A DNA stretch of 64,000 nucleotides from Cymbomonas tetramitiformis (Eukaryota; Chlorophyta; Pyramimonadophyceae; Pyramimonadales; Pyramimonadaceae), in contig LGRX02027843.1 of the NCBI GenBank assembly GCA_001247695.2, positions 1 to 64,000 on the forward strand, in the 5' to 3' direction. The position numbers and the translations under genes were made by a program. The notes beneath the pieces were generated by a model. It was not told the origin of the DNA and did not search any database. It worked only from the letters and a program-made list of their open reading frames with translations. Positions 22,209-37,117 of the stretch are shown here, one piece after another. Within the stretch, counting starts at the first letter, position 1. Every line of letters starts with the position of its first letter.

Positions 22209-22392
22209 TGTGAGATATATAGCTATGACTATATATTGGGCTACGGCCAGAATGCTTTCACTTTCGGGTTTTACAGAGTGTCCATAAAACATAAGATAGT
22301 CTCGGCTTTATGTCGGAAGCCCTAAACCTGTGACACCCGTACTGTACCGAGTACTAGTACAGATAACAGGAAGTGACACACGGTGTGTCACA
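22209..22392 (-). mobile_element. LTR (184 bp), R0 family, downstream copy
   Basis: Minus orientation, TGTGACAC..CTCACA. By eye it has about ten differences from the LTR at 36935-37117. It serves as the 3' LTR of R0 (R2 is inserted at its very edge), yet it is followed by a primer-binding site, as a 5' LTR would be. This suggests a tandem or recombined arrangement of two elements sharing one LTR. No target duplication was found for R0. Confidence 0.75.
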
Positions 22393-25300
22393 TGCTGGAA
22401 CAGTCACACCGCTTGCTTTGTGACTCTTCCTATAGTAGTGTGTATGACTGTCACCCGAACCCGAACCCTAACTGTTTATGCCCGTTATATCGGGTTAACT
22501 TATCAACTTTATTACATTCTGAGAAAACCTTCACTGAGTGAATATATCCCGAGTCCTAGGGGTATATCCAACAGGTTTGGCCCCACTCACTCTTTATTTA
22601 GACACTGCGTAGTTTGGCCATGTCAGGCTAAACACCGACGCTTGGGATGGAGTGAGGGGCTCCACTAGAGGCGCGGCGGAGCGGTATGGCCTAGTTACGT
22701 GGCTGGTTGATTGGACTTACGGAGAGCTCGGGCTCGTGGCTGCTTGATTTTCCCGTACTACGCGTTGGTAGACGTTGGAATTTTGGTCGGATCCGACACC
22801 AAGTTCCTTGGCCGCGTTGTTAGATCCACATGCACGTTTGGGGAATCTTTTGCGCCGCAGCTTTCCTTCTTTTCCTCGACAACCGCCTCACGACTTTTGG
22901 CCGCCGCTCCTTCCGCACCTCGCCACATTTGCCCTCACTTCGTCTCTATAGTCTTCTACATCATGGTTGCGACTAGATTGACCTCAAGTATGGCGTCACG
23001 CCGACGCTCGCTAGCTACAATTTTCGACTCCGCTGCCGCACGTAATTCCGTCACGCCGGCTACGCCGGCACCCGCTGGTGCTCCAGCTGCGAACTCCGCA
23101 CAAGCCGTATTCTTGGCGGGTGTTCGCTCGCTCACGCGTGAGCGCTTCGACGAGAGCGTGGCGAAGCACGTCATCCGGAAATGTTTTCCCGACAAGCATG
23201 ACCGATTTACGGGTGCGGAGTCGAACGCTCAGGTGCTCCTCTCCAAGCTGGTGCCTGCTCTCCAGGAGGCATTCGAGGCCGAGGACGCGCTGTTTGCCCC
23301 TATGTTCGACTTGGAGGACTCCACGTTGGCCGTGCGACCCGAGGCCAACAAGCTCCTCTTCTCAACTCTCGAGCTCATCGTGTCTCCCGCCTCTCCAGCG
23401 GGTGACTGGCTCGAGGCATCTGCGACCTTGCACCCTCTGGACGGCAAGCGGGCCCTGCTGGAGCTCGCAAGGCGTCTACTGGACTCCGGTGCACCCTTCC
23501 AGGGGACATCGGACCTCCTTGGCGTCCGCTTGAAGGCCCACACCGACCCGTCCGAGTCCATCACGGACTTCAACGCGGCCTTACGGTCTGCCAAGAGGCG
23601 CAACACTCTCGACGATGACGAGGTGAAGGAGCTGTTCCTCGCGGCGCTGGACCCGGGATTCTACGCGCCGGTGGTGTCACGGCTCTTCACGCACCAGCAG
23701 CGGGCGGCCGTGGACCTCCTCACCATTCAGCAATGGGTCCTCGAGTGCTACGCCCGACACGTGGCAGCCGGTACGCACACTGCCTCGTTCACCCTGTCCG
23801 CAGCGGCCGTGGCCACTGACGGCGACACCTCGCAGCTGTCCGACCTCACGGCCATCATCCTCGACGTGAAGCGGCAGCTGAAGGTCCTCACGGACAAGGT
23901 CAACGGGCGGGGTTTTACCCCGCGGGCGGACAAGAACAAGATCGGCAACGGGGGAGGCGGCTCCGGTGTTCGTTTTGCGGCGGGTGACCTCCCGACGGGA
24001 GGGAACTGGCCGCAGTCGCAGGTGAGGAAGCGCGTTGCCTTTCACAAAGGCAGCGGCGACTTCATTCCGTTCTGCCAAAATTCAACGTGCAAGAAGGACG
24101 AGGCCCGCCACTGGCACCGCGACTGCCCGAACGGCGGCAAGCACGGCGCTGGGGGAAGCTTCCACAGCTTCTCCCTCGGTGACATCGAGAACGACTTGCT
24201 GGCGGAGCAGTTTCAGACGGCCATGGACGAGCACGACGGCGAGCGGTTCGATGCGCTCTGCCTTCTGGCGGGGGGCAAGCCGGAGATGCTCGACGGCGTT
24301 TCGGCTTGTTCCTTCGGGGTCGAACCGGAGCAGGAAAACGGTGCGTTGCAGGAGTTCCTGCCCTACTGCCAGCCTGCCACCCACATGGGCGGCTTCACGG
24401 TCGGTGGTGTCGAGAGCGGGATCTCGGCTGCCGCCTGCACGCATGTCCGGGAGGACCCACCGCCGGCTCCACCGCCGGCGGCAATCGAGCATGTTTACCC
24501 GGGCGAGTCGGAGGCGTCCGACACCGGTGACATGATGCCGGTGGACCCCATGCACGCGCACGAGCCCGACCTCTGCTTTGCGGACCGGATCGCGCGGATG
24601 GGGGGACTCTCGATCACGGCTGCGGGCAAGGACTTCGCGATGCGGTACATGCACGCCGAGTCGGAGACCGACTCTTGCGACGGCGACGTGGACGACTCTG
24701 CAGCTGGGTGTGACTCTATTGACGGTGAGGATGCGGTCCCGCGCCCTACGGCATCTCGTCCGGGATGCGGTGCACCGCCTTGGGGGTTTGCCCGCTCTTC
24801 GGCGATTGCGGTAATGCTTTGTGCGCTCTTTTGTGTGTGCGCCACCGCGGCGCCACTCACAGCTACCGCCCCTGGCGAGGCATGCGCACCGGACCACACC
24901 GGCCTGGAGGTCGGTGGTGCTGCTGAGACAACCGACAACGAGCCTGCATTCACTTTTGCGGCGCCGGCTGCTATTCCGCCGCATCGGCAGACGCGGTATC
25001 GGGAGCTACGACAGGGGTTCCACACTCTCCGCAATGTCCCGCGGCCGCCGTGGCTGTATAATCCCGACCCTGATTATGTTCCACAGTCACCACCTTACCC
25101 GCCACCGCCGTACTCGTCCGATGACGAGGAAGAGAGCTCTGGAGACCATGCGACTGTGCACGACGATCGACAAATTTCAGATTCCTTTTCTGGCTCTACG
25201 AATGATTCAATCACGGCATCGACATCTTCAATTCACGGCACCATGACTGTGCTGCGGGCCGGCACAGCAGTGCCACCGCCAACTAGTGGCTAGGAAGTTA

Positions 25301-35936: not shown

Positions 35937-36934
35937 CGTCGAAGTCTTGGATTAACGGATCGGGGTCGAGGTTGGAGGCGAAGTGGATGGCACACAACTC
36001 CTCGGAGTTCCCAAGGGGTCGGAGAACTCGAGGAAGTAGCCTTTTCGTGACCTCAAGCAAAGCCCGCTTCCCATCTCGCGGAGAAGCACGTCCAGAAGCG
36101 TCCACCCAACGCCTTGCGGGTGAATGCGGTCTCGTCAAAGATGTCAACGCCGTAAAGAGGATGGCGTTGTAGACGTTGTTGACCTCCTTGGTGGCATCCG
36201 CCAAGTCGAAGAGGGTGTCGTTGGCGGCGTCCTTCAGCTCAAATGCCGATTGTAAAGATGTCACCAACGATGTCCATAGTACATTGCGGTCCGATTCGTC
36301 ACCTCGGAATGACGCATCTTTGGAGCCAAGAGCGTCTCGAGATGTCCTCTTGATCAAATCCACGTCCCATGATGAATTCTGAACGGCCACGGCACGTGTC
36401 CGCTCAGGGGCCGTCAAATTAGCCGCCGGAGATAGATGCAGGTGTCGGCCGATAGCGCATCCCAACGTCTCGGGAAAAAATCGTGTCAAGCCGGATTCGG
36501 TTGTGAGCCCCCATGGGAGGCGTAGCGTGCGAAGAAACACTCATGATAGAAAAATCCTATAGGTGGGTACGTCGGGGTAAGGTGGCGATGGCGCGGAGAG
36601 GAGGAACTCGCGGAAATGTGATGGCAAAAGCAGTCAAAACGTCCGTAACTGTGAAATCCCAATTGTAGAAATGTGGAAGTCGAAGTACACGTTGCGCAAG
36701 AAGCCCGCGACAAAGAGTGATCAATTCCAGTCAAAACGAAAATCCCGTGGACATCCAGAAAATCACGTAGGGTACGCTGCAGCGATAAACACAATTACTC
36801 CGTAACGACGCGTGCCTCAACCGCGAGCTCTCATAGCGCAACCATCAAATGGGGCCCCCAACGCCCCACCAAGCGGAGGCGTTTAGCCAACCATGCTACC
36901 AAAAGTAGTGGAAGGTGCCTGGCGCACCATAACC

Positions 36935-37117
36935 TGTGAGATATATAGCTACGACTATATATTGAGTTACGGTCAGAATGCTTTCACTTTCGGTTTGCAA
37001 GAGTGTAAATAAAACATAAGATAGTCTCGGCTTTATGCCGGAAGCCCTAAACCTGTGACACCCGTACTGTACCGAGTACTAGTACAGATAATAGGAAGTG
37101 ACACACGGTGTGTCACA
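36935..37117 (-). mobile_element. R0 5' LTR (183 bp)
   Basis: Minus orientation, TGTGACACACCG..CTCACA, followed by GGTTATGGTGCGCCAGGCAC (primer-binding position) and about 390 bp later by the R0 gag start. Closely similar to 22209-22392. The primer site still ends in the CATAACC-complement but its remainder differs from tRNA-iMet, pointing to another tRNA half or to decay. Confidence 0.85.

What the first reader, a model, noticed from the sequence alone, without database searches (positions are those of the whole stretch)
22209..37117. A base-resolved nest: one gag-only LTR element cut by five other elements
R0 gag on the minus strand can be followed through 25910-36544 once inserts with clear duplications are set aside: hAT-like MITE 1 (AAGCAGAG), MULE 1 (GGGTTGAAG), R1 (GCAAT), hAT-like MITE 2 (CGTCGAAG); R2 (TCACA) sits at its LTR edge and MULE 3 (TGACATCCT) inside R1. 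The gag frame resumes across each junction. Three superfamilies with three duplication lengths (5, 8, 9 bp) are thus seen in one locus with a partial order of events.
Basis: seen in the sequence. Interest (0 to 1): 0.75.

Follow-up and report, generated by a model that had tools for sequence, protein, structure and literature searches.

The report
Gag-only retrotransposon cut by nested transposons
In a green alga's genome, an old virus-like element that carries only a shell-protein gene has been cut by five later jumping elements; such nesting is ordinary, but the shell-only family itself, which has no copying enzyme of its own, is worth a closer look.

Summary
The nest is real. The window lies in the genome of the green alga Cymbomonas tetramitiformis. 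Of 40 places scored, 39 are other R0 copies, 92-97% identical. In the 29 read, the insert sites are empty in 25 (R2), 22 (MITE1), 28 (MULE1), 28 (R1) and 28 (MITE2). No repaired locus was built.

Corrections: R0 is 22209-37124 with its own duplication TAACC; R2 sits inside R0's left LTR; R1's right end lies in an assembly gap (only CAAT seen); MITE1 lies at the last codons of gag; R0 has at least three frameshifts of its own; R0 sits in an older element X, a miniature LTR element with a tRNA-like LTR.

R0, R1 and R2 are three gag-only families. The R2 capsid model is nearest to Copia and Ty1 capsids, at modest scores. R2 (0/181) and R1 (0/88 visible) LTR pairs are identical; R0's differ at 11/183.

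Best reading: TR-GAG-type, Copia-like satellites moved by Pol supplied in trans, later buried by insertions. The Pol supplier was not identified. Nesting is ordinary; the Gag family, with a conserved membrane-like segment, is the interesting part.

The parts
37130..37439 (-). X, right terminal repeat (TCATGAGG...CCCCATGA on the minus strand) holding a tRNA-like sequence at 37179-37252
   Evidence: 91.8% identical to L060 103-393; ARAGORN tRNA-Ala ggc; Rfam tRNA 36.7 bits, cut-off 29
22130..22208 (-). X, internal region: PBS GGTTATGGGCCCACCACGCTTCC onward; R0 is inserted after its first 5 bases
   Evidence: L060 400-534 matches 22209-22075 at 95.6%
22028..22129 (-). X, remnant of left terminal repeat, cut off or diverged below 22028
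   Evidence: 99% identical to 37338-37439 (D8)
22209..37124 (-). R0, gag-only LTR element with its inserts; 5-bp duplication TAACC at 22204-22208 and 37125-37129
   Evidence: LTR ends seen in other copies; exact 5-bp duplication in 14 of 15 other two-LTR copies
36935..37124 (-). R0 5' LTR (190 bp)
22209..22392 (-). R0 3' LTR, outer piece (inner piece 25694-25700, beyond R2)
   Evidence: 11 differences in 183 to the 5' LTR
35936..36934 (-). R0 internal block with gag residues 1-284 of the ruler copy; contains a frame change
35400..35655 (-). R0 gag block, residues 283-367
28867..29858 (-). R0 gag block, residues 367-695; two frame changes
   Evidence: query is 28881-29853
26672..27121 (-). R0 gag block, residues 695-842 (membrane-like segment and C-terminus)
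25701..25942 (-). R0 3' end between gag and the 3' LTR
   Evidence: 96-98% identical to other copies in DNA; no gag match
22393..25688 (+). R2, gag-only LTR element; LTRs 22393-22573 and 25508-25688 identical; duplication TCACA 22388-22392 / 25689-25693
   Evidence: site empty in 25 of 29
22963..25290 (+). R2 gag, 776 aa, open
   Evidence: capsid model
25943..26671 (+). MITE1, hAT-like (CAAGGTTGTCAATCAG ends); duplication AAGCAGAG 25935-25942 / 26672-26679
   Evidence: site empty in 22 of 29
27122..28866 (+). MULE1, terminal inverted repeats of about 100 bp, tandem 185-bp units inside; duplication GGGTTGAAG 27113-27121 / 28867-28875
   Evidence: site empty in 28 of 29
29859..35399 (+). R1, gag-only LTR element, right end in the N gap; duplication GCAAT 29854-29858 / (G)CAAT 35400-35403
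   Evidence: site empty in 28 of 29
30541..32712 (+). R1 gag, 724 aa, open
32989..35139 (+). MULE3 in R1's right LTR; terminal repeats GGTAGC...; duplication TGACATCCT 32980-32988 / 35140-35148
   Evidence: (I4); uninterrupted site in R1's own left LTR at 29938-29951
35154..35399 (.). assembly gap (246 N) that hides the end of R1's right LTR
35656..35936 (+). MITE2, hAT-like (CAGGG...CCCTG ends); duplication CGTCGAAG 35648-35655 / 35937-35944
   Evidence: site empty in 28 of 29

Best explanation
R0 is an old copy of a family of short (about 3.29 kb) LTR retrotransposons that code only for Gag. Its Gag is of the Ty1/Copia capsid type. Such elements have no reverse transcriptase or integrase and so must be copied and inserted by those of a full element (inferred); Copia elements with long open frames are common in this genome. 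R0 integrated into the primer-binding site of a tRNA-bearing miniature LTR element (X), making the duplication TAACC. Later two younger gag-only elements of sister families (R2 in R0's LTR, R1 in gag), two hAT-like MITEs and a MULE-like element landed in R0, each duplicating its target, and a second MULE landed in R1. Shown: inserts, duplications, empty sites, gag order, LTR divergences, absence of pol within uninterrupted copies. Inferred: supply of Pol in trans and by whom, Copia kinship, superfamily of the DNA elements.
Confidence: 0.85

Rival explanations
1. The blocks between the gag pieces are normal parts of one composite element, not inserts.
Against: Sites are empty in 22-28 of 29 other copies; blocks carry their own terminal repeats and duplications.
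Confidence: 0.01
2. R0, R1 and R2 are recent internal deletions of full Copia elements, not independent gag-only families.
For: Gag-only elements usually arise by loss of pol; Copia elements abound here.
Against: Three families with 25-40% identical Gags each keep a long open gag; R0 copies show pN/pS 0.29; R0 spans cluster at 3,284-3,294 bp; ten R2 LTR pairs at 3,092-3,115 bp.
Confidence: 0.2
3. The Gag is of the Ty3 (Metaviridae) type and Ty3 elements supply Pol.
For: Ty3-type chromoviral elements are reported in this genome (passages of PMC10675990); Retrotrans_gag PF03732 has 150 scored places.
Confidence: 0.1
4. The nest is partly an assembly artefact (collapsed repeats, gap at 35154-35399).
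For: 246 N inside the nest; L049-L051 look like one locus assembled three times.
Against: Every junction has a target duplication matched by an empty site elsewhere; false joins would not create duplications of 5, 8 and 9 bp matched to element type.
Confidence: 0.04

Closest known systems
TR-GAG elements (for example ATCOPIA63 AT5TE33540 of Arabidopsis; passages of PMC8704663)
   Same: Two LTRs, one open frame for Gag, no pol; the Arabidopsis one is Copia-type and was seen to transpose, with a full relative as likely helper
   Different: Gag here is 724-851 aa against 562 aa, carries a conserved hydrophobic segment near the C-terminus, and relatives were found only in Cymbomonas; no helper identified
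Ty1/Copia retrotransposons (Drosophila copia, yeast Ty1 and Ty5)
   Same: 5-bp duplications; capsid model nearest to copia and Ty1; PBS start GGTTATGG resembles anticodon-loop tRNA-iMet priming described for copia and Ty5 (passages of PMC10886601)
   Different: No protease, integrase or reverse transcriptase; R0's match to the tRNA-iMet complement is only 8 bases
Helenus, TRIMs with a tRNA-like sequence in the LTR (PMC10886601: abstract, passages and section 3.4)
   Same: X: short terminal repeats with a tRNA-like sequence, a PBS against what looks like the tRNA-iMet anticodon side, and no coding region in the 80-base internal part of L060
   Different: The only plant Helenus in that paper is from Selaginella with 120-bp LTRs; X has LTRs of about 297-333 bp. 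X's own duplication was not tested
Nested transposons of grass genomes (recalled, no call)
   Same: Elements inserted in elements, ordered by duplications and LTR divergence
   Different: Here in a prasinophyte alga

Membership tests
TR-GAG (gag-only LTR retrotransposon) | two LTRs with target duplication | tested here: met
   R0 TAACC, R2 TCACA; 14 of 15 other R0 copies. R1 right LTR partly in the gap
TR-GAG (gag-only LTR retrotransposon) | single long open frame coding Gag | tested here: met
   R1 724 aa, R2 776 aa; 10 of 29 R0 copies with 800 aa or more; capsid-like model of R2
TR-GAG (gag-only LTR retrotransposon) | no pol in the element | tested here: met
   no room in ten R0 copies of 3,284-3,294 bp or ten R2 LTR pairs at 3,092-3,115 bp
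TR-GAG (gag-only LTR retrotransposon) | moved in trans by a full element | tested here: inconclusive
Ty1/Copia | Copia-type pol (integrase before reverse transcriptase) | not testable with these tools
   the elements have no pol
Ty1/Copia | Copia-type capsid fold | tested here: inconclusive
Ty1/Copia | zinc knuckle CX2CX4HX4C in Gag | tested here: inconclusive
   several R0-type Gags have CX2CX4-5HX4C; R1 and R2 types have CX4CX6HX4C
Ty3 (Retrotrans_gag, PF03732) | match to PF03732 | tested here: not met
   no family at E <= 0.1 for R1 and R2 gag
hAT MITEs (MITE1, MITE2) | 8-bp duplication and short terminal inverted repeats starting CA | tested here: met
hAT MITEs (MITE1, MITE2) | ends shared with a hAT transposase element | not tested
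   no search made
Mutator-like (MULE1, MULE3) | 9-bp duplication and long terminal inverted repeats | tested here: met
   MULE1 repeats about 100 bp, MULE3 about 50 bp
Mutator-like (MULE1, MULE3) | mobilised by a MULE transposase | not tested
   no search made
Helenus (element X) | tRNA-like sequence inside the LTR | tested here: met
   Rfam tRNA 36.7 bits in the window, 39.7 in L059 and 35.9 in L060, cut-off 29; ARAGORN calls one in the window but none in L059 or L060
Helenus (element X) | PBS and PPT in a short internal region | tested here: met
   80 and 92 bases between the repeats in L060 and L059, starting with the PBS; PPT judged by eye
Helenus (element X) | target duplication | not tested
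   left repeat of X in the window is incomplete; L059 and L060 end inside the second repeat

The most novel reading that the evidence does not exclude
Cymbomonas carries a whole clade of gag-only elements whose Gag has gained a membrane-anchor-like segment after the zinc knuckle, so that they live as capsid-coding satellites: they make their own membrane-associated particles and borrow only reverse transcriptase and integrase from Copia elements, and have done so long enough to split into families with Gags only 25-40% identical, each under selection for the protein.
Probability: 0.15. Interest if true: 0.75.

Novelty: new member of a known kind. Interest (0 to 1): 0.36.

Why it matters
As a nest it is a clean, testable record of insertion order in an algal genome where, by the published repeat table, LTR elements take 140.6 Mb (15.3%; passage of PMC10675990), but nesting is expected there. 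The wider point is the element itself: gag-only families that keep Gag under apparent selection ask why a parasite without polymerase should pay for its own capsid protein. A genome with thousands of Copia reverse-transcriptase candidates and at least three gag-only families allows that to be tested by matching LTR, PBS and PPT between helper and satellite.

Tried and rejected
Composite single element: rejected by the empty sites. R0's left flank as a captured primer tRNA: the left flank 22183-22208 looks like the 5' half of tRNA-iMet (recalled) and abuts the LTR exactly where a primer would, so a retained primer was considered; rejected when L060 showed that flank and the right flank to be one continuous repeat (X), with R0's TAACC duplication in X's PBS. 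That R0 landed exactly at X's repeat/PBS boundary is left unexplained.

Pol partner: L067 and L068, downstream of two common-PBS sites, held no frame of 150 aa or more in the sense direction (one of 228 aa on the other strand in L067) and no gag of this kind beyond one 24-residue match at E 0.010. A YxDD motif scan of all loci held then found only one weak place, in L008. Searches with R1 gag for the size of the open frame around each hit, with R1's LTR, with X, with PF14223, with two short patterns and (first try) with two LTRs did not complete by the server; of these, one search was answered on repeat, (R2 LTR), and (PF07727). So copy numbers of X, of R1 and of gag within long frames are unknown.

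Late-domain idea (PPxY in R2 gag, which could mean budding): PPxY in 16 of 64 Gags and not in R1, so weak and dropped. Dating in years: no mutation rate for this alga, so only relative. Most of the rest of the window gave no Pfam match: 2 of 6 non-nest proteins had RVT_1, and 0 of 10 matched anything. Literature: searches for Cymbomonas with retrotransposon (5 papers) and with transposable element (6 papers), and for gag-only or non-autonomous LTR elements; from the listings and the passages read I saw no gag-only family described for this alga; only PMC CC-licensed papers are held.

Full report
Identity and setting. Relatives of the R2 protein are all named Cymbomonas tetramitiformis, a green alga (78 of 78 rows); the genome held is 851.7 Mb in 25,745 contigs and the window is contig C18704. 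The published long-read assembly paper lists LTR elements at 140.6 Mb (passages of PMC10675990).

Is the nest there? Repeats, terminal repeats and duplications are as described. A search with the uninterrupted R0 block 28881-29853 gave 40 scored places of 1,322 candidates: the window and 39 others at 92-97%. I read 29 of these 39 beyond the query (L030-L058; L049, L050 and L051 have the same flank, so 27 independent loci). Aligned to the window, their sequence runs straight across each insert site: R2 25 of 29, MITE1 22 of 29, MULE1 28 of 29, R1 28 of 29, MITE2 28 of 29, with overlaps of the size of one duplication. Short strings of left flank plus right flank were also read, with up to five errors allowed, in 28, 19, 28, 28 and 19 of 29. 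So no removal of inserts was needed, and none was made.

What R0 is. In 15 other copies with two full-length LTRs, ten are uninterrupted and span 3,284-3,294 bp; 14 of 15 have exact 5-bp duplications, the exception being L046. The LTR starts TGCTGGA and ends CACA, which moves R0's end in the window to 37124 and shows the duplication TAACC. The LTRs of R1 and R2 also start TGCTGGA. The R0 pair in the window differs at 11 of 183 sites (K2P 0.063; the 7-bp inner piece differs at 1), against 0-0.027 in 14 of the 15 others and 0.072 in L046; the R2 pair is identical over 181 and the R1 pair over the 88 visible bases. R0 is thus older than R1 and R2. Thirteen of the 27 independent loci carry at least one insert of over 80 bp and none more than two (nine of the loci were read with only 1.5 kb on each side of the query, so this is a lower bound), so five inserts is the most seen here.

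Gag. Window blocks compared one by one with the open gag of an uninterrupted copy fall in order: 1-59 and 45-284, 283-367, 367-483, 480-575 and 579-695, 695-842; the changes of frame inside the first and third blocks mean at least three frameshifts in R0. MITE1 lies beyond residue 842 of 851. In the 29 other loci, 10 keep a frame of 800 aa or more; among these pN/pS is 0.29 overall, 0.17 in the first 420 columns and 0.59 after column 560. Choosing open copies biases this towards low values, and the 45 pairs share history. R0 gag is 29-30% identical to R1 and R2 gag, and R2 to R1 37% over 453 columns.

Relatives. Three protein searches gave 78, 33 and 50 rows, 156 distinct proteins, all named Cymbomonas. 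Five of them have a precomputed Pfam domain; one of those is a polymerase-type domain, RNase H in P0065, and a re-scan puts it just under its cut-off (25.1 against 25.8 bits, 10 of the 78 scanned). The searches cannot show proteins longer than 1.75 times the query, so a fusion to a full Pol would be missed by them; the evidence for gag-only is the size of the elements. For R2, 40 of 1,722 LTR candidates were scored and ten same-contig pairs lie 3,092-3,115 bp apart, none further.

Other Gag features. R1- and R2-type Gags have CX4CX6HX4C (33 of 46 and 54 of 78 proteins); R0-type Gags have none of that form (0 of 32) but a shorter knuckle, CX2CX4HX4C or CX2CX5HX4C, in the nine clear R0-type rows of A3 apart from one variant (P0103). 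After the knuckle, a 19-residue stretch with mean hydropathy of 1.6 or more is present in 37 of 46 (7.2 expected from shuffling), 26 of 31 (8.7) and 18 of 21 (8.75) proteins of R2, R1 and R0 type that have over 200 residues there. The search groups are taken as types, though a few rows in each are mixed. The segment is conserved; a membrane role is inference.

What R0 sits in. R0's two flanks belong to one repeat, X, seen uninterrupted in L060: a 297-base terminal repeat with a tRNA-like sequence, an 80-base internal part starting GGTTATGGGCCCACCACGCTTCC, then the next repeat. R0 is inserted five bases into that internal part. The 23-mer occurs 1,198 times in the genome (reversed control 0). 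In eight places read, six lie directly behind the end of another LTR, judged by eye, and two are X or a variant; two otherwise unlike elements share 33 identical bases there. By recall the string is complementary to the anticodon side of tRNA-iMet, as for copia and Ty5; the alga's own tRNA gene was not fetched. R0's own PBS shares only the first 8 bases.

Mechanism. Shown: each insert made its own duplication at an empty site; MULE3 came after R1; R1 and R2 are recent. Inferred: gag-only elements are moved by reverse transcriptase and integrase made by full Copia elements, as reported for a Copia TR-GAG in Arabidopsis (passages of PMC8704663). The helper is therefore open.

Verdict. Nesting is ordinary. 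The Gag family, with three lines, a conserved hydrophobic segment and no known helper, is a new member of the TR-GAG kind and the reason for the score above the floor.

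Noticed in passing
22028-22208 and 37130-37439; L060, L059: Element X: miniature LTR element with a tRNA-like sequence in its terminal repeat (Helenus-like), with two variants bearing different tRNA-like sequences. Its copy number could not be counted.
   Followed up: partly
L055 2691-2927: A 213-base LTR followed by exactly 24 bases of the common PBS (237 bases in all) is inserted in an R0 gag with no duplication and no loss of target, as one would expect if plus-strand strong-stop cDNA had been captured at a break rather than integrated.
   Followed up: partly
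genome-wide; window 789-818: A 23-base PBS string occurs 1,198 times in the genome, behind several unrelated LTRs; a near copy lies at the left edge of the window.
   Followed up: partly
37440-37532: Piece of R0-type gag in the opposite orientation directly beside X (inverted pair with 36367-36433), so X may itself sit in another gag element.
   Followed up: no
39476-39783: Second copy of the MULE1 end region, 91-93% identical.
   Followed up: no
11379-12305 (+) and 47415-48077 (-): Two reverse-transcriptase frames (RVT_1), not of the nest.
   Followed up: no
G000, PF07727 places: Copia reverse transcriptases lie in open frames of up to about 2,440 aa, much longer than the roughly 1,400 aa that I recall for Copia polyproteins.
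   Followed up: no
27783-28452; 34407-34914: Tandem repeats inside MULE1 (three 300-nt copies, 185-bp period) and repeats inside MULE3.
   Followed up: no
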